DNA from: an uncultured Asticcacaulis sp.
GTDB lineage: Bacteria; Pseudomonadota; Alphaproteobacteria; Caulobacterales; Caulobacteraceae
Length of the DNA: 20,568 bases
NCBI GenBank assembly: GCA_946480125.1
Contig: CAMLIY010000026.1
Coordinates: forward strand, 1-20,568
Direction of reading: 5' to 3'
Below are positions 1,097 through 6,469 of this stretch, in pieces. Both the position numbers and the translations under genes were made by a program. Below the pieces are notes generated by a model. It saw only the letters and a program-made list of their open reading frames with translations. It was not told the DNA's origin and made no database searches. How positions within the stretch are numbered: the first letter of the stretch is position 1; each line of letters opens with the position of its first letter.

Positions 1097-1387
1097 GTCA
1101 GCTGAATCCAAAACCGGCACCGCTAAAATCTACCCTTCGGCCATTCTGACAGGTCGTTGCGCGTGTTCTTGGATGAACGTGGGGATTAAACGCGACATCT
1201 TGGTATGGCAAAACCCGCACACTTCGATATATGGCTAAACACATTTAAAGTTCGCAACAATTACTTTTAAATATAAAAACCAAATAGTAGTATTTATTAT
1301 CTGTGAAAATTTTCTTGATAAATCAATAGCTTCTGTGGTATTTTTGTTATCAACCCGTCATTTATAATACCAGGAAGCAATTAACTC
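1097..1387. other. AT-rich non-coding stretch upstream of the receptor promoter
   Basis: This stretch contains no supported gene. From about 1236 to 1385 the sequence becomes strongly AT-rich, unlike the rest of the window. An imperfect inverted repeat pairs ATTTAAAGT (1243-1251) with ACTTTTAAAT (1263-1272), and a short GGTATT/AATACC pair lies at 1337-1342 and 1366-1371. The AT-rich block directly precedes the LacI-type operators. It could be promoter upstream sequence or a site for a nucleoid protein, but nothing specific can be assigned. Confidence 0.4.
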
Positions 1388-1401
1388 TGGCAACGTTGTC
1401 A
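1388..1401. promoter_or_regulatory. LacI-type operator O1 of the TonB-dependent receptor
   Basis: The 14-base near-palindrome TGGCAACGTTGTCA has the central CG and the TGnnAACGTTnnCA pattern typical of LacI/GalR-family operators; 12 of its 14 positions are symmetrical. It lies 21 bp centre to centre from a second similar site at 1409-1422, that is two helical turns. It falls between a possible -35 (TTAACT, 1381-1386) and possible -10 sequences (TACAAT at 1402-1407 or CAATAT at 1404-1409), where bound repressor would block polymerase. The LacI regulator encoded at 15692 is the only family member in the window and is the natural candidate, by inference. Confidence 0.65.
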
Positions 1402-1408
1402 TACAATA

Positions 1409-1422
1409 TGATAGCGTTATCA
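1409..1422. promoter_or_regulatory. LacI-type operator O2 of the TonB-dependent receptor
   Basis: TGATAGCGTTATCA is a near-palindrome (12 of 14 symmetrical positions) with the same CG centre as the site at 1388-1401 and on the same face of the helix. It would cover the likely transcription start region. Tandem sites in phase suggest cooperative binding by two dimers. If transcription starts here, the receptor gene has a leader of roughly 260 bases. Confidence 0.65.
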
Positions 1423-1681
1423 TTGAATACGGACCCAAGGCTGTAGCAGCCAACCATAAGCTGACCTGCCGGCGAGTATCGTATCAACAAGTTGGGAAAG
1501 AACGTAAGGATTGGCGAAACGCTCAATACGGGCCTTATTTTCACGTTTTGGCGTTTTTACATTTAAACACTGTTTTATGCACCTGTGGTCGCCAGCACCA
1601 TGGGGCCTCCTTTCCCGTCTTGCCATTTGGTTATTCCGCGTTCGGAAAGCGCGCGGCTGTTCATTCAGGGAGACGTTTTAA
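1423..1681 (+). other. Long 5' leader of the receptor gene
   Basis: About 259 bases separate operator O2 from the receptor start codon, with no supported gene on either strand. Visible elements are a possible long-range AAACGC/GCGTTT pairing (1517-1522 with 1551-1556) followed by five T, a CCTCC at 1606-1610, and the receptor's Shine-Dalgarno AGGGAG at 1667-1672. CTCCTT (1607-1612) can pair with that Shine-Dalgarno over six bases, including one G-U. I see no known riboswitch. The leader boundary depends on the inferred promoter position. Confidence 0.35.
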
Positions 1682-4600
1682 ATGACGACGACTAAAAAAA
1701 ATCTGGGCCTGCTGATGGGAACCGCCTCTATGGTGGTGCTCGGCACCTTGGCCATCGGCACATTTGCCTACGCCCAGGACGCCGCACCGGCGGCACCGGC
1801 GGTATCTGATGACACGGTCATCGTCGTAACCGGCCAGCGCGCCGCCTTCAAATCGGCGCAGAAGATCAAGAAAGACGCCAGCGAAGTCGTCGACTCGATC
1901 GTGGCCGACGACATCGGCAAGCTGCCGGACCGCTCGGTCACCGAAGCCCTGCAACGGGTTTCCGGCGTCACGATCGACCACACCATGGCGCGTGGCGACC
2001 CTGAGCACTATTCGGTTGAAGGCTCCGGCGTCAATATTCGCGGCCTGACCTATGTCCGTTCCGAACTGAACGGCCGCGACTCGTTTTCGGCCAATGGCGG
2101 CCGCTCGCTGAATTTCGAAGATGTCCCGCCCGAACTGATGGCCGGCGTCGATATTTACAAGAACCCATCGGCCGAGCAGATCGAAGGCGCCATCGGCGGT
2201 CTCGTTAACCTCCGCACCGCCCTGCCCTTCGATTATAAGGGCTTTAAAAGTTCGGTCGGCATTCAGGGCACCTATGCGGAACTGAACAAGAAGGGCGCTA
2301 CCGATCCGTCCGTTTCAGCCATGGTTTCCGACCGCTGGTCCACCAGCCATGGTGATTTCGGCGCTCTGCTTGACCTGGCCTATTCGGAAAGCTCAACCCG
2401 CACCGACGCGTTCCAGGTCGAACCCTATTATAACCGCACCGATATCGTGCCCGGCGAGACCGTCTGGGTGCCCAAGGGCGCCGAATGGCGCACCCTGAAC
2501 TTCGACCGCAAGCGTTTTGGCGCCTATGGCGCGCTGGAATGGCGTCCGAACGACTCCATGCTCCACACCCTGACCTTCTTCAATTCGCACTACAAGATGC
2601 AGTGGGATGAAAACGCCATCTTCTCGGCGGCGGGCGGCCTGCAAAATATTCAAGTGGCGAATGGCGTTTATAACGAGAATGGCGCCATGTTGAGCGGCGT
2701 CCTGACCGACCCTGCCGACGGCGGCATCAACTTCAACGATGACACCCGCGTCGCCAACCGCGAATCCGACACCACCGACGTCGCCTGGAATTTCACCTGG
2801 AACGCCTCGGACCGCTGGACCTTCAAATCCGATCTGCAATATATCCGCTCAACTACCAAATCGTTCGATTCGACGGTCGCCACAGGTTTGCTGGTGCCTG
2901 AAGAAACCATCGACCTGAGCGGCAATATTCCGAGCATCAGCGTCGATCCGACCTACCTGGCCAATGCCGACAACTATTACTGGTCGTTCACCCAGGAACA
3001 TTTCGACCGCAGCGTAGCGCACGAATGGGCCTGGAAGGGCGACGCGAAATACGATTTCGACGGCCCCGTTTTCGAGGATATCCGTTTCGGTCTGCGCTAT
3101 ACCGACCGCGATTCGACAACCGTGAACTCGAATCCGAGCTATCACTGGGCGGCCATCACTCAAACCTGGCAGGGTGAAATCCCCGGTGTCGCCAAGCTCG
3201 GCGATCCGCGTTTCGCCGGTGGCGCCAGCCTGCATAATTTCGACAACTTCTTCAATGGCGATGCGTCGGTTCCCGCCGTGGTCGTGCCTGATGTCGATGT
3301 TGCGGCCGGTTATCCGGATTCCTACGCCAAGATCCATGAATATTACACCGTGCTGTGTAACGAGAAAAACGCCCAGCTGGCGGCGCAGAACCTGGCACAA
3401 AATACGTGTTCGACCTGGGCCCCGGCCACCTTCAGCGACGACCCGTCAGCCGGCGGCATCAATGATCAGCATGAAAAGTCCTACGCCTTCTATACGCAGG
3501 TCCGTTTCGGCTGGCATGATCTGAAATACCCGATCGACGGTAATATCGGTGTCCGTTTCGTCAAGACCGACATGACCGCCAACGGCTTCCAGACCTTTAC
3601 TCAAAACCCGCCGCCGACCGGCACGCTTACCGGCATAGAGGTGCCTACCTTTACAGGGCCTCAGGTACAGCCGCAGATCGTCAGCGCTGAGAACAGCTTC
3701 ACCAACACCCTGCCCAGCCTCAACCTGCGCATGAAGGTCAATGATCAGCTGCAATTCCGCTTTGCGGCGGCCAAGGCGCTGTCGCGTCCGGACTTCACGC
3801 AACTCCAGGCCTATACCACCTACACGGCCGGCACGACCACGACACCGCTTCTGGACGGTTCCGGCAATACAATCGGTGCGAACGTCGAAAGCCTGAACAA
3901 TACCGGCACGGCGAATGGCAATCCGTACCTGCGTCCGACCACCTCCGATCAGTTCGACCTGACAGCGGAATGGTACTTCTCGCCGGTTGGCTCTCTGACA
4001 GCGGCCCTGTTCTACAAGAACCTGCATGATGTCATCATCAACAACATCTTCACCACGCCGTTCACGGCGACCAACGGTCAGACCTACGACTTCACCACCA
4101 CAGGTCCGGTCAATGGCGCGGATGGTACGGCCCAGGGCTTCGAAGTGGCCTATCAGCAATATTTCGACAGTCTGCCGGGCTGGTTCTCGGGCCTGGGCGT
4201 TCAGGCCAACTTCACCTATGTGGAGAGCACGGAAGACCTGTATAATGGCGTTTCCAGCCCTTATTGCAGCGCCAGCGCCGGCAATGGCGCTGTCAATCTC
4301 AACCTGAACCTCAATGGCTGCGACACCGACGGCCGCACCTTCGGCAACCTGCCGCTGGCCTATCTGTCGCGTTACAGCTACAACCTCGCCATCCTGTATG
4401 ACAAGGGCCCGATCTCGGCCCGCCTGGCTTACAACTGGCGCTCGAAGTACCTGCAAGGCGTCAACGTCAATGGCACCAACGGCACCGACGGCTTCACCAC
4501 CGATCCGACCAACCCGCTTTACGGCGGCGGCTTTGCCTGGGGCCTGCCGACCTGGGCTGATGACTATGGTCAGCTCGATGCTTCGGCCTTCTATAAGGTC

Positions 4601-4747
4601 AATGACCGGATCACGATCGGCATCGAAGCTCAGAACATCAACAATGCGATGTACAAGCAGTTCATGCAGCAGCACATCGGCGATATGGGCCGCGCCTGGT
4701 TCGTCTCCGGTCCGCGCTACACCGCACAACTGCGTTACACCTTCTAA
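1682..4747 (+). CDS. TonB-dependent outer-membrane receptor, Xanthomonas/Caulobacter type
   Basis: A 1021-residue outer-membrane active transporter. Residues 1-31 form a signal peptide (hydrophobic core, then AYA before Gln32). A TonB-box-like DTVIVVT lies at 44-50, followed by a plug domain to about residue 190 with the hallmarks KLPDRSVTEALQRVSGVTI, VNIRGLTYVRSELNGR and AIGGLVNLRT. The rest is a beta-barrel rich in aromatic/Gly strands, ending in the terminal Phe of RYTAQLRYTF that guides outer-membrane insertion. Length and motifs fit the large family used in Caulobacterales and Xanthomonads for oligosaccharide uptake. AGGGAG at 1667-1672 supports the ATG at 1682. Two LacI-type operators lie upstream, a structured terminator region follows, and a tryptophan-halogenase-like gene is next. 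The substrate is not readable; a beta-glucan oligosaccharide is inferred from the GH16/symporter block at 12.8-16.8 kb. Confidence 0.95.
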   Translation: MTTTKKNLGLLMGTASMVVLGTLAIGTFAYAQDAAPAAPAVSDDTVIVVTGQRAAFKSAQKIKKDASEVVDSIVADDIGKLPDRSVTEALQRVSGVTIDHTMARGDPEHYSVEGSGVNIRGLTYVRSELNGRDSFSANGGRSLNFEDVPPELMAGVDIYKNPSAEQIEGAIGGLVNLRTALPFDYKGFKSSVGIQGTYAELNKKGATDPSVSAMVSDRWSTSHGDFGALLDLAYSESSTRTDAFQVEPYYNRTDIVPGETVWVPKGAEWRTLNFDRKRFGAYGALEWRPNDSMLHTLTFFNSHYKMQWDENAIFSAAGGLQNIQVANGVYNENGAMLSGVLTDPADGGINFNDDTRVANRESDTTDVAWNFTWNASDRWTFKSDLQYIRSTTKSFDSTVATGLLVPEETIDLSGNIPSISVDPTYLANADNYYWSFTQEHFDRSVAHEWAWKGDAKYDFDGPVFEDIRFGLRYTDRDSTTVNSNPSYHWAAITQTWQGEIPGVAKLGDPRFAGGASLHNFDNFFNGDASVPAVVVPDVDVAAGYPDSYAKIHEYYTVLCNEKNAQLAAQNLAQNTCSTWAPATFSDDPSAGGINDQHEKSYAFYTQVRFGWHDLKYPIDGNIGVRFVKTDMTANGFQTFTQNPPPTGTLTGIEVPTFTGPQVQPQIVSAENSFTNTLPSLNLRMKVNDQLQFRFAAAKALSRPDFTQLQAYTTYTAGTTTTPLLDGSGNTIGANVESLNNTGTANGNPYLRPTTSDQFDLTAEWYFSPVGSLTAALFYKNLHDVIINNIFTTPFTATNGQTYDFTTTGPVNGADGTAQGFEVAYQQYFDSLPGWFSGLGVQANFTYVESTEDLYNGVSSPYCSASAGNGAVNLNLNLNGCDTDGRTFGNLPLAYLSRYSYNLAILYDKGPISARLAYNWRSKYLQGVNVNGTNGTDGFTTDPTNPLYGGGFAWGLPTWADDYGQLDASAFYKVNDRITIGIEAQNINNAMYKQFMQQHIGDMGRAWFVSGPRYTAQLRYTF

Positions 4748-4861
4748 ACCGGCAAAAGCATTCGCGGCTCTACTCCTCCCGAGTCGCGAATGTCTCCGGC
4801 CTGAGCCGGTAGCCGAACTGAAGATAACTGGCGGGCCCGTTTACGGCGCCCGCTTTTTTTT
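4748..4861 (+). ncRNA. Candidate 3' UTR-derived small RNA with anti-Shine-Dalgarno loop
   Basis: Directly after the receptor stop codon lies a 114-base region with three consecutive hairpins. The first is a 12-bp stem (4759-4770 with 4781-4792, one G-U pair) whose 10-base loop is TACTCCTCCC. The second is CCGGC-CTGA-GCCGG at 4796-4809. The third is a strong intrinsic terminator at 4831-4861. A C-rich CUCCUCCC loop matches 8 of the 9 bases of the CCUCCUCCC motif of alphaproteobacterial cuckoo/CcsR small RNAs, which bind purine-rich Shine-Dalgarno sequences. No independent promoter is obvious, so release by processing of the receptor mRNA is the simpler model. The structure is seen; the regulatory role is inferred. 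Confidence 0.4.
4831..4861 (+). terminator. Intrinsic terminator after the receptor gene
   Basis: GCGGGC (4831-4836) pairs with GCCCGC (4848-4853) and is followed immediately by eight T (4854-4861). This is a textbook Rho-independent terminator. It separates the receptor transcript from the downstream halogenase gene at least partly, although the two genes point the same way. Confidence 0.85.
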
Positions 4862-4966
4862 GCCCGGATAAAGACTTGGGGAAAGCCAGGCATAGTTAAA
4901 TCGTATAAGGCAATTGCTCTGCGGTCAGGGGATATGCCAGGGTATAGAGGGCCCGAGGAAACAGGA

Positions 4967-6469
4967 ATGAACGATAAAGCGATACGGAAAATCGTCATTG
5001 TGGGCGGCGGCACCGCCGGCTGGATGGCGGCTGCCCCTCTGGCTCAAAGACTGGGTAAAACCACCCAAATCGAACTGGTGGAATCCGCCCAGATAGGTAC
5101 GGTCGGCGTTGGAGAGGCTACCCTGCCGACCATTCGCTTCTATAATCACAGCCTGGGCATCAATGAGGCCGATTTCGTCAGGAAGACACAGGGCACCTTC
5201 AAGCTCGGGATCGAATTCCGCGACTGGGGCCATATCGGCAACCGCTTCTTCCACGGCTTCGGTGATTTTGGCCCGCGCATTGAAAACCGCTCACCGCATC
5301 ATCACTGGCTGCGCCTGCGTCAGATGGAAGAGGTGCCGCCGTTCGAAGACTGGTCAATGTCCACTGTCGCGGCACGGCTCAACCGTTTCACCCCGCCCTC
5401 CGGCGATCAGCCCTCCGCCGCCAACGCCTATGCCTATGCCTATCATTTCGATGCCGGGCTCTATGCCGCCTTCCTGCGCGATTACGCCCTGCAGCGCGGC
5501 GCCCTCCGCACCGAAGGCCAGATTATCGATGTTGAGCTGAACGCGGATACCGGCTTTATCGAAGCCTTGAAACTGGATGACGGCCGGCGCGTCGAAGGCG
5601 ATCTGTTCATCGATTGCTCCGGCTTTCGCGGCCTGCTGATCGAGGGCGCGCTCAAGGCCGGGTTCGAAGACTGGTCACGCTGGCTGCCGTGCAACAGCGC
5701 CCAGGCCGTGCCGTGCGCGTCGGTCAGTCCTCTGACGCCCTATACCCGTTCGACCGCGCGCAGCGCCGGCTGGCAATGGCGCATTCCCCTGCAATCCCGC
5801 ACAGGCAACGGCCATGTCTATTGCGATGGCTTTACCTCTGACGCCGAAGCCGGCCAGGTATTGATGGAAAATCTCGATGGAGAAGCGCTGGATAATCCGC
5901 GCCAGCTGCGCTTTACGACCGGGCGTCGCAAAGCGGCCTGGGTGAAAAACTGCGTCGCCATCGGTCTGTCATCGGGCTTTCTGGAGCCGCTGGAATCGAC
6001 CAGTATTCAGTTGATCGAATTCGGTCTTGGCAGCCTGATCGAACTGTTCCCCGACCGGACCTTCAATCCGCATCTGGCGACGGAATATAATCGCCGCTCG
6101 GCCACGGCCTATGAAAGCGTCCGGGACTTCATCATCCTGCATTACAAGCTAACCGACCGCACCGATTCCGATTTTTGGCGGTATTGCCGTGACATGGCCA
6201 TACCCGATCGGCTGCATCACCAGATCGACACCTTCCGCGACACCGGCCATGCCGTCGTCTATGATCCGAACAGTTTCGTCGAGCCGTCCTGGCTGTCGCT
6301 CTATTTCGGCCTGGGCCTCATTCCGCAGAGCTATGATCCTTTTGTCGACCACATCGATAAAGCGCAACTGCGCAGCCATTTCGCCCGTATCCGCGCCTTG
6401 GTGATGCAGGCGGCGCAGGCCATGCCGGACCACGCCGATTATATCACTCGCCACGCAAAGGCGGGATAA
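4967..6469 (+). CDS. Flavin-dependent tryptophan halogenase family protein
   Basis: A 500-residue cytoplasmic flavoprotein of the PrnA/RebH family, which uses FADH2, oxygen and halide to chlorinate or brominate aromatic substrates. Motifs seen: FAD-binding GGGTAG at 13-18; Lys79 in GTFKLGIEF, at the same number as the catalytic lysine of PrnA; the signature WQWRIP at 269-274; and SGFLEPLESTS at 336-346, containing the family's active-site glutamate. All key residues are present, so it is predicted to be an active oxidoreductase. ATG at 4967 is preferred because GAGGAA at 4955-4960 is correctly spaced; the upstream in-frame ATG at 4934 has no good site. Homologues commonly sit beside TonB-dependent receptors in Caulobacterales and Xanthomonads, where no free-tryptophan substrate has been shown to my knowledge. 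The family is certain; the substrate is unknown. Confidence 0.9.
   Translation: MNDKAIRKIVIVGGGTAGWMAAAPLAQRLGKTTQIELVESAQIGTVGVGEATLPTIRFYNHSLGINEADFVRKTQGTFKLGIEFRDWGHIGNRFFHGFGDFGPRIENRSPHHHWLRLRQMEEVPPFEDWSMSTVAARLNRFTPPSGDQPSAANAYAYAYHFDAGLYAAFLRDYALQRGALRTEGQIIDVELNADTGFIEALKLDDGRRVEGDLFIDCSGFRGLLIEGALKAGFEDWSRWLPCNSAQAVPCASVSPLTPYTRSTARSAGWQWRIPLQSRTGNGHVYCDGFTSDAEAGQVLMENLDGEALDNPRQLRFTTGRRKAAWVKNCVAIGLSSGFLEPLESTSIQLIEFGLGSLIELFPDRTFNPHLATEYNRRSATAYESVRDFIILHYKLTDRTDSDFWRYCRDMAIPDRLHHQIDTFRDTGHAVVYDPNSFVEPSWLSLYFGLGLIPQSYDPFVDHIDKAQLRSHFARIRALVMQAAQAMPDHADYITRHAKAG

What the first reader, a model, noticed from the sequence alone, without database searches (positions are those of the whole stretch)
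4748..4861. Three-hairpin 3' UTR of the TonB receptor with an anti-Shine-Dalgarno loop: candidate small RNA
A 12-bp stem carries the loop TACTCCTCCC, then a 5-bp tetraloop hairpin, then a strong intrinsic terminator. A CUCCUCCC loop plus terminator is the layout of alphaproteobacterial cuckoo/CcsR-type RNAs and similar C-rich-loop riboregulators, but here it is at the end of a nutrient receptor mRNA. The loop could pair with GGGAGGAG-like ribosome binding sites, including AGGGAG of the receptor itself and AGGAGG of the small gene at 926. This would couple receptor transcription to control of other mRNAs.
Basis: partly seen in the sequence, partly recalled or inferred. Interest (0 to 1): 0.7.

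Follow-up and report, generated by a model that had tools for sequence, protein, structure and literature searches.

The report
C-rich RNA hairpin after receptor gene
The tail of a nutrient-receptor message in an Asticcacaulis-like bacterium carries a strong RNA hairpin whose loop matches ribosome-binding sites, and similar C-rich stretches recur in the tails of other receptor messages in related bacteria, which suggests, but does not yet prove, that receptor messages help to control one another.

Summary
After the TonB-receptor stop codon (4745-4747) come a 12-bp stem (13 with a closing G·U) with loop UACUCCUCCC (z -6.6), a weak 5-bp tetraloop hairpin and an intrinsic terminator with 8 T. The genome is not held; the best named protein matches are Asticcacaulis. 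No Rfam family reaches its cut-off, but the best sub-threshold matches are the anti-Shine-Dalgarno RNAs ar14 (23.4 of 58.8 bits) and CcsR1 (18.8 of 65.3). The hairpin sequence is not conserved at the syntenic locus, and the closest orthologues could not be opened. What recurs is the loop's content. Between stop and terminator (up to 120 nt), CCTCC or CTCCC occurs in 34 of 125 relatives' receptor UTRs against 4 of 96 other genes (reverse complement 6 of 125); by receptor cluster, 19 forward against 2 reverse of 63. Composition explains part of this. The motif is mostly predicted unpaired. One receptor UTR comes near the alphaR8/MmgR cut-off (31.5 of 41 bits). Best reading: a 3'UTR-encoded, cuckoo-like anti-Shine-Dalgarno RNA, one of a recurrent set on receptor mRNAs. 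A discrete RNA, its processing and targets are inferred. New variant of a known kind.

The parts
1682..4747 (+). TonB-dependent receptor (1021 aa) whose mRNA carries the element
   Evidence: TIGR01782 649 bits, cut-off 310; PF00593 and PF07715
1667..1672 (+). AGGGAG Shine-Dalgarno-like sequence of the receptor, possible pairing partner
   Evidence: sequence; 5-bp duplex with the loop, -9.9 kcal/mol
4758..4793 (+). hairpin 1: stem of 12-13 bp with loop UACUCCUCCC
   Evidence: z -6.6, 0 of 200 shuffles
4771..4780 (+). loop TACTCCTCCC, the anti-Shine-Dalgarno motif (CTCCTCCC at 4773-4780)
   Evidence: aligned with the CUCCUCCC loops of ar14 and CcsR1
4796..4809 (+). hairpin 2: 5-bp stem with tetraloop CUGA
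   Evidence: z -2.3, 6 of 200 shuffles
4831..4861 (+). intrinsic terminator: stem 4831-4853, T run 4854-4861
4967..6469 (+). tryptophan-halogenase-family gene downstream of the terminator (the frame opens at ATG 4934; ATG 4967 is the likelier start)
   Evidence: PF04820 615 bits for the frame from 4934; the start at 4967 is judged by eye

Best explanation
Hairpin 1 with its loop, hairpin 2 and the terminator form the 3' end of the receptor mRNA. After endonuclease cleavage near the stop codon (inferred), they probably persist as an RNA of about 105-115 nt ending at about 4861. The loop UACUCCUCCC is presented unpaired (predicted) and pairs with G-rich Shine-Dalgarno sequences, above all those of other TonB-receptor mRNAs. 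It would thereby lower their translation, as the alphaR8 RNA SisA does in Caulobacter and the ar14 RNA NfeR1 does in rhizobia (inferred by analogy). Transcription of one receptor would thus damp translation of rivals. Shown here: structure, motif, terminator, and recurrence of the mostly unpaired motif in receptor 3'UTRs of the genus. Not shown: a discrete RNA, Hfq binding, any target, the direction of effect.
For: Structure is beyond shuffles. The best Rfam matches, though sub-threshold, are ar14 and CcsR1, aligned over the loop CUCCUCCC and, for CcsR1, also over GCAAAAGC just before the stem. A fixed rule was applied: CCTCC or CTCCC between stop and terminator, up to 120 nt. Discovery: 15 of 54 receptor UTRs against 2 of 56 others. 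Replication in other genomes: 17 of 61 against 2 of 32 controls of G033 and G025, p 0.015; a further 0 of 10 controls lay beside the 30 loci. Pooled without the window: 34 of 125 against 4 of 96, p 3e-6, reverse complement 6 of 125 and 4 of 96. By clusters: 19 forward against 2 reverse of 63, p 2e-4. CTCCC was the most enriched of all 5-mers (31 of 125 against 3 of 96). Motif bases are predicted 0.76 unpaired against 0.49 for other C. The three syntenic UTRs (L168, L197, L218) all carry the motif, and the receptor of G044, 55% identical to the window's, has a first UTR hairpin with loop CUCCC. Another receptor UTR (L296) scores 31.5 bits for MmgR/alphaR8, cut-off 41. Receptor leaders carry GGGAG or GGAGG in 16 of 55 against 46 of 724 other leaders.
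Against: No Rfam family at its cut-off in the window or in 20 chosen receptor loci; of 9 receptor loci scanned below the cut-offs only L296 resembled an anti-Shine-Dalgarno family. No listed hit in 25 genomes of the nearest genus spans hairpin 1, and the syntenic UTRs share position and C-rich content, not sequence. Of the four best family orthologues (55-64%), only G044 shows the motif before its terminator. 91 of 125 receptor UTRs lack it; in the receptor cluster of L169, 5 of 8 do. Part of the excess is general pyrimidine richness: dinucleotide shuffles already give 21.5 of 125, sd 3.4, against 34. In 800 kb of the nearest relative, C-rich-loop hairpins are not in excess overall: 16 found, about 22 expected. 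Outside the genus support is thin: 2 of 10 and 0 of 7 family UTRs, 3 of 32 UTRs of the mostly betaproteobacterial receptors L001-L080. Pairing with receptor leaders is not better than for shuffled loops. Gene ends in the controls come from a crude ORF caller.
Confidence: 0.45

Rival explanations
1. Ordinary mRNA 3' end: a protective stem-loop and an intrinsic terminator. The C-rich loop is a by-product of pyrimidine-rich, G-poor spacers that keep the terminator free to fold.
For: A terminator within 260 nt follows 59 of 79 receptor genes, many with no accessory hairpin. Dinucleotide shuffles of the UTRs explain about two thirds of the motif count (21.5 of 34). Hairpin sequence differs at the syntenic locus.
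Against: The count exceeds all 300 dinucleotide shuffles (34 against a maximum of 32) and all 300 mononucleotide shuffles (maximum 27). Other genes with terminators mostly lack it (4 of 96; with strong terminators 1 of 33 against 28 of 86).
Confidence: 0.3
2. The loop is a decoy for G/A-rich small RNAs of the CrfA kind, which in Caulobacter pair with the UUUCCUCCCU core of SisA-D. The receptor mRNA would soak up the sponge or be protected by it.
For: CrfA pairs with such a core through its G/A-rich second stem loop (PMC12559287, section 7). Some receptor UTRs carry the same core, e.g. UUUCCUCCC in L296 and UUUCCUC in L172, L200 and L306.
Against: No CrfA homologue was sought in these genomes. 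The UTR motif is as consistent with pairing to mRNAs.
Confidence: 0.1
3. The element acts in cis: the loop pairs with the receptor's own GGGAG leader, or it tunes read-through into the halogenase gene, as an autoregulatory or attenuating 3'UTR.
For: A 5-bp duplex with the own leader at -9.9 kcal/mol. Receptor, terminator and halogenase keep this order at the syntenic locus.
Against: Only 5 bp at a distance of 3 kb, and shuffled loops pair equally well with receptor leaders. The genes downstream of the other motif-bearing receptors were not surveyed.
Confidence: 0.1
4. A stand-alone small RNA gene with its own promoter inside the end of the receptor gene.
For: Layout of hairpins plus terminator.
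Against: No match to the three promoter patterns tried in 4400-4760 (patterns recalled), and no sigma-70-type site there. Absence of a pattern match is weak evidence in this group.
Confidence: 0.05

Closest known systems
ar14 / NfeR1 RNAs (Rfam RF02344; cuckoo family)
   Same: Long stem with a CUCCUCCC loop followed by a terminator. In that family stems differ widely while the anti-Shine-Dalgarno motif stays (PMC10746234, passages). Best sub-threshold match of the window.
   Different: ar14 has three hairpins, each with the CCUCCUCCC motif; here one loop carries 8 of the 9 bases, inside the tail of a receptor mRNA.
CcsR1-4 RNAs (Rfam RF02791)
   Same: CCUCCUCCC-type motif; RNAs cut by RNase E out of a transcript that also encodes a protein and ends in a Rho-independent terminator (PMC10253847, passages). 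The window's match spans the whole model.
   Different: CcsR RNAs share a transcript with a DUF1127 gene under an RpoH promoter; here the host gene is a TonB receptor, and the score is 18.8 against 65.3 bits.
alphaR8 RNAs SisA-D / MmgR (Rfam RF00519 suhB)
   Same: Anti-Shine-Dalgarno core UUUCCUCCCU upstream of a terminator; SisA represses TonB-receptor mRNAs in Caulobacter (PMC12559287, sections 7 and 12 part 1, and passages). A different receptor UTR, L296, scores 31.5 of 41 bits.
   Different: The window itself has no suhB match up to E 5 and shows its motif in a hairpin loop, not in a single-stranded linker.
GsrN of Caulobacter
   Same: C-rich loop that pairs with G-rich mRNA leaders (PMC5869019, passages).
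   Different: GsrN is a sigma-T-controlled RNA, and it activates katG.

Membership tests
ar14 (RF02344) | score at or above the curated cut-off (58.8 bits) | tested here: not met
   23.4 bits
ar14 (RF02344) | three hairpins, each with CCUCCUCCC | tested here: not met
   only hairpin 1 carries it, 8 of 9 bases; the definition is from PMC10746234 passages
ar14 (RF02344) | silencing of mRNAs by pairing at the Shine-Dalgarno site | not testable with these tools
   needs reporters
CcsR1 (RF02791) | score at or above the curated cut-off (65.3 bits) | tested here: not met
   18.8 bits
CcsR1 (RF02791) | co-transcribed with a DUF1127 gene | tested here: not met
   the gene upstream is a TonB receptor
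CcsR1 (RF02791) | RNase E processing of the precursor | not testable with these tools
   needs RNA
alphaR8 / MmgR / SisA (RF00519) | covariance-model match | tested here: not met
   no match up to E 5 in window 4700-4960; sub-threshold in the relative L296
3'UTR-derived small RNA (general type) | strong terminator shared with the mRNA and an upstream structured element | tested here: met
3'UTR-derived small RNA (general type) | discrete processed RNA in vivo | not testable with these tools
   no RNA data for this organism

The most novel reading that the evidence does not exclude
In Asticcacaulis-like bacteria the TonB-receptor mRNAs as a class carry anti-Shine-Dalgarno elements in their 3'UTRs, each built anew on its own stem or linker. 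Some are near-copies of alphaR8 RNAs, others are cuckoo-like loops such as the one in the window. Expression of one receptor releases an RNA that competes for the G-rich ribosome-binding sites of the others, so that dozens of paralogous receptors form a mutual-repression network encoded in their own mRNA tails.
Probability: 0.22. Interest if true: 0.82.

Novelty: new variant of a known kind. Interest (0 to 1): 0.55.

Why it matters
Caulobacter alone holds more than 60 TonB receptors (PMC11005374, passages), and how such bacteria avoid making all of them at once is open. Separate small RNAs are known to act on receptor mRNAs: SisA, with its sponge CrfA (PMC12559287), and RusT (PMC11005374). If the receptor mRNAs themselves end in anti-Shine-Dalgarno RNAs, the regulated genes are also the source of regulators, which would make receptor choice a winner-takes-most circuit and is easy to test. 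The statistical part, anti-Shine-Dalgarno motifs concentrated in receptor 3'UTRs, can be checked on existing Caulobacter RNA-seq or RIL-seq data.

Tried and rejected
Own genome: none is held. Orthologues of the receptor: 313 genome stretches, best 80 kept at 44-62%, mostly Oxalobacteraceae and other Burkholderiales; 390 family genomes, nothing above 64%; plasmids, 84 records, all below 60%. The orthologues whose tails I folded gave no homologous UTR. DNA search with the UTR in 25 genus genomes: 22 had hits up to E 1; of the loci cut out I looked at eight, and they were coding stretches (six) or unrelated terminators (two); no listed hit spans hairpin 1. A dispersed-repeat origin of hairpin 1 is not supported by that search, though repeats in the window's own genome cannot be seen. 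A genome-wide excess of C-rich-loop hairpins was looked for and not found. Specific complementarity of the loop to receptor leaders was tested and not found beyond composition. Covariation of hairpin 1 could not be counted for want of orthologues.

Mended on re-checking: an outgroup count of 0 of 17 for L001-L080 used the longest frame of each locus, which need not be the receptor. Redone from the receptor's own end it is 3 of 32 usable of 80 loci, reverse complement 1 of 32. The other two outgroup sets still rest on the longest frame of their shorter loci.

Rows dropped before counts. Discovery: 29 of 108 loci were left out (longest frame under 800 aa or last residue not in FYWLIV); of the remaining 79, 59 had a usable terminator, 54 within 120 nt. 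Replication: of 80 receptor hits outside G039, 64 had a usable terminator, 61 within 120 nt. Family genomes outside the genus: 10 of 30 and 7 of 17 loci usable; the two sets overlap in part. The terminator rule sometimes takes the first hairpin for the terminator: L172, L200 and L252 were cut there and counted as lacking the motif, although C-rich stretches follow.

Chosen after seeing the data: the loop-motif list (12 of 48 receptor-UTR loops against 3 of 117 in other UTRs, reverse complement 2 of 48 and 2 of 117), and the 5-mer pair, taken from the window's loop. and the all-5-mer ranking were run afterwards as checks.

Full report
What is there. Hairpin 1 (4758-4793) has 12 bp, or 13 with a closing G·U, and the loop UACUCCUCCC; it folds at -20.8 kcal/mol, z -6.6, none of 200 shuffles as stable. 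Hairpin 2 (4796-4809) is weak alone (z -2.3). The terminator (4831-4861) has z -3.4 and eight T. The whole 131 nt have z -4.96. In 150 Markov copies of the window, CTCCTCCC in the loop of a stem of at least 8 bp came up twice.

Setting. The receptor is of the TIGR01782 type, 649 bits over a cut-off of 310. Downstream is a PF04820 tryptophan-halogenase-family gene, 615 bits. No genome is held for the window. The best named protein matches are from Asticcacaulis sp. 201: receptor 66%, halogenase 78%. By DNA identity of a neighbouring sugar-nucleotide dehydrogenase the nearest held genomes are G039, G046 and G045, 85-87%, in a genus of 25 held genomes.

Conservation at the locus. In G039, G046 and G045 the same neighbourhood holds a receptor, a UTR with a terminator and a halogenase; the DUF885 gene next to it is there in G039 and G046, not in G045. 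The window's receptor is mosaic: window 1323-2234 aligns at 76-77% DNA identity to G039 and G046, while the receptors as wholes are 45-46% identical in protein. The UTR hairpins differ: G039 has a 12-bp stem with loop TCCCGAGACTTT followed by CCTCCC; G045 an 11-bp stem with loop CCTCGTCCA followed by CCTCCCC; G046 only a short stem with loop TCCCC. So position, terminator and C-rich motif recur (3 of 3), but the hairpin does not. Among the four best family orthologues of the receptor (G002, G274, G001, G044; 55-64%), only G044, which is in the genus, has the motif before its terminator: a first UTR hairpin with loop CUCCC. In a DNA search of the 25 genus genomes no listed hit spans hairpin 1. 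Hairpin 1 is therefore lineage-specific as far as can be seen.

Known RNA families. Nothing reaches a curated cut-off in the window. Below it, the two best matches are ar14 (23.4 bits, cut-off 58.8, E 0.007) and CcsR1 (18.8 bits, cut-off 65.3, E 0.012) for the 151 bases searched; the next, on the other strand, is the ylbH leader (13.9 bits). Both align the loop CUCCUCCC in a long stem, and CcsR1 also the GCAAAAGC before it. A published description of ar14 states that its stems differ widely while the CCUCCUCCC motif is kept (PMC10746234, passages). For such RNAs, divergent stems are expected.

Does the motif recur in receptor 3'UTRs? I took TIGR01782 receptors of G039, G046, G045 and G032 and the stretch from stop codon to intrinsic terminator. 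Rows dropped are told under Tried and rejected. With up to 120 nt, CCTCC or CTCCC is present in 15 of 54 receptor UTRs and in 2 of 56 UTRs of other genes of G039; the reverse complement is in 2 of 54 and 2 of 56. The same rule on other genomes (20 stretches each of G033 and G025, and 30 loci from six genomes) gave 17 of 61 against 2 of 32 controls from G033 and G025, p 0.015, reverse complement 3 of 61; controls beside the 30 loci gave 0 of 10. Pooled with 10 UTRs of three family genomes outside the genus and without the window: 34 of 125 against 4 of 96, p 3e-6; reverse 6 of 125 and 4 of 96. Counting each receptor cluster (55% identity) once: 19 forward and 2 reverse of 63, p 2e-4. With strong terminators only: 28 of 86 against 1 of 33. 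Among all 5-mers CTCCC is the most enriched, 31 of 125 against 3 of 96. In one search, 126 UTRs including the window, motif bases are unpaired with mean 0.76 against 0.49 for other C.

Limits of that result. Composition explains part: dinucleotide shuffles of the same UTRs give 21.5 (sd 3.4, maximum 32 in 300), mononucleotide shuffles 16.2 (maximum 27 in 300), real 34. Gene ends come from a crude ORF caller and terminators from a simple rule that at times stops at the first hairpin. 91 of 125 receptor UTRs lack the motif. Outside the genus there are 2 of 10 and 0 of 7 family UTRs (the sets overlap in part) and 3 of 32 UTRs of the mostly betaproteobacterial receptors L001-L080, reverse complement 1 of 32. 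Genome-wide, hairpins with such loops are not in excess in 800 kb of G039, 16 against about 22 expected.

Individual cases worth naming. L173 and L203, orthologues in G039 and G046, hold two hairpins each with pyrimidine-rich loops (GCTTTCCCTA or CTTTTCCCTA, and CCCTATCTCC). L217, L300 and L301 keep TCCTCCCA; L300 differs from the other two in its 5' flank. L169 and L199 share CCTCCTC, but 5 of the 8 UTRs of their cluster lack the motif. L368, outside the genus, has TTCCTC-CTCCC-GAGGAA. L172, L200, L296 and L306 share CTGTTTCCTC; L296 and L306 are in one receptor cluster, where L172 and L200 are not listed. The L296 UTR matches MmgR/alphaR8 over the whole model at 31.5 bits (cut-off 41; E 0.011 in 52 kb); of the 9 loci in that scan no other gave an anti-Shine-Dalgarno family, and two further weak matches (P11, anti-hemB) look like chance. 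At the gathering cut-offs, 20 chosen receptor loci gave nothing.

Targets. Leaders of 55 receptors carry GGGAG or GGAGG in 16 cases against 46 of 724 other leaders, and the window's loop pairs better with receptor leaders (median -7.7 against -4.9 kcal/mol). But shuffled loops of the same letters do as well (77 of 200 at least as good), so the preference is for purine-rich leaders in general, and start sites in the controls may be misplaced. The receptor's own GGGAG and the GGAGG before the small frame at 926 can each form a 5-bp core with the loop.

How it likely works. AlphaR8 RNAs SisA-D in Caulobacter share an anti-Shine-Dalgarno core UUUCCUCCCU upstream of a terminator, SisA represses TonB-receptor mRNAs, and CrfA is their sponge (PMC12559287: outline, section 7, part 1 of section 12, and passages). 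CcsR RNAs are cut by RNase E out of a transcript that also encodes a protein (PMC10253847, passages). By analogy the window's UTR would be released from the receptor mRNA and act on Shine-Dalgarno sites of other receptor mRNAs. Only structure, motif and recurrence are shown; processing, Hfq, targets and direction of effect are inferred.

Novelty. Searches of the held library returned no paper that, in its listing, reports anti-Shine-Dalgarno elements in receptor 3'UTRs. The library lacks most subscription journals, and the cuckoo-family paper is not held. I rate it a new variant of a known kind. The hairpin fails tested defining features of ar14 and CcsR, so it is not filed as a member of either.

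Noticed in passing
window 1323-2234 against 2235-4747: Mosaic receptor: leader and N-terminal part align at 76-77% DNA identity with the syntenic genes of G039 and G046, the rest of the receptor has diverged (45-46% protein identity overall), and the flanking DUF885 gene is again 85-86% in DNA. It looks like exchange of the barrel, UTR and perhaps the halogenase at a fixed locus.
   Followed up: partly
L296 1418-1484 (minus strand), 3'UTR of a TonB receptor in G034: Whole-model match to MmgR/alphaR8 (suhB) at 31.5 bits, cut-off 41: a receptor 3'UTR that looks like an alphaR8 small RNA.
   Followed up: partly
3'UTRs of L198, L247, L299, L288: A UTR hairpin with the kept loop TTYACCCGTT and stems that differ between species, with compensatory changes between L247 and L299 judged by eye. 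Base pairs were not counted.
   Followed up: partly
L173 and L203 (G039, G046), 3'UTR of a receptor: Two accessory hairpins with pyrimidine-rich loops; in L173 the terminator loop is C-rich too. A stronger small-RNA candidate than the window's.
   Followed up: no
L178, L207, L229, L255, L260, L262, L267: A dispersed repeat roughly of the form ACCTCCCC-loop-GGGGAGG(GGGACC) lies after several receptor genes; its C-rich side is paired. Only 1 of the 125 counted UTRs carries the motif on both strands.
   Followed up: partly
   Followed up: no
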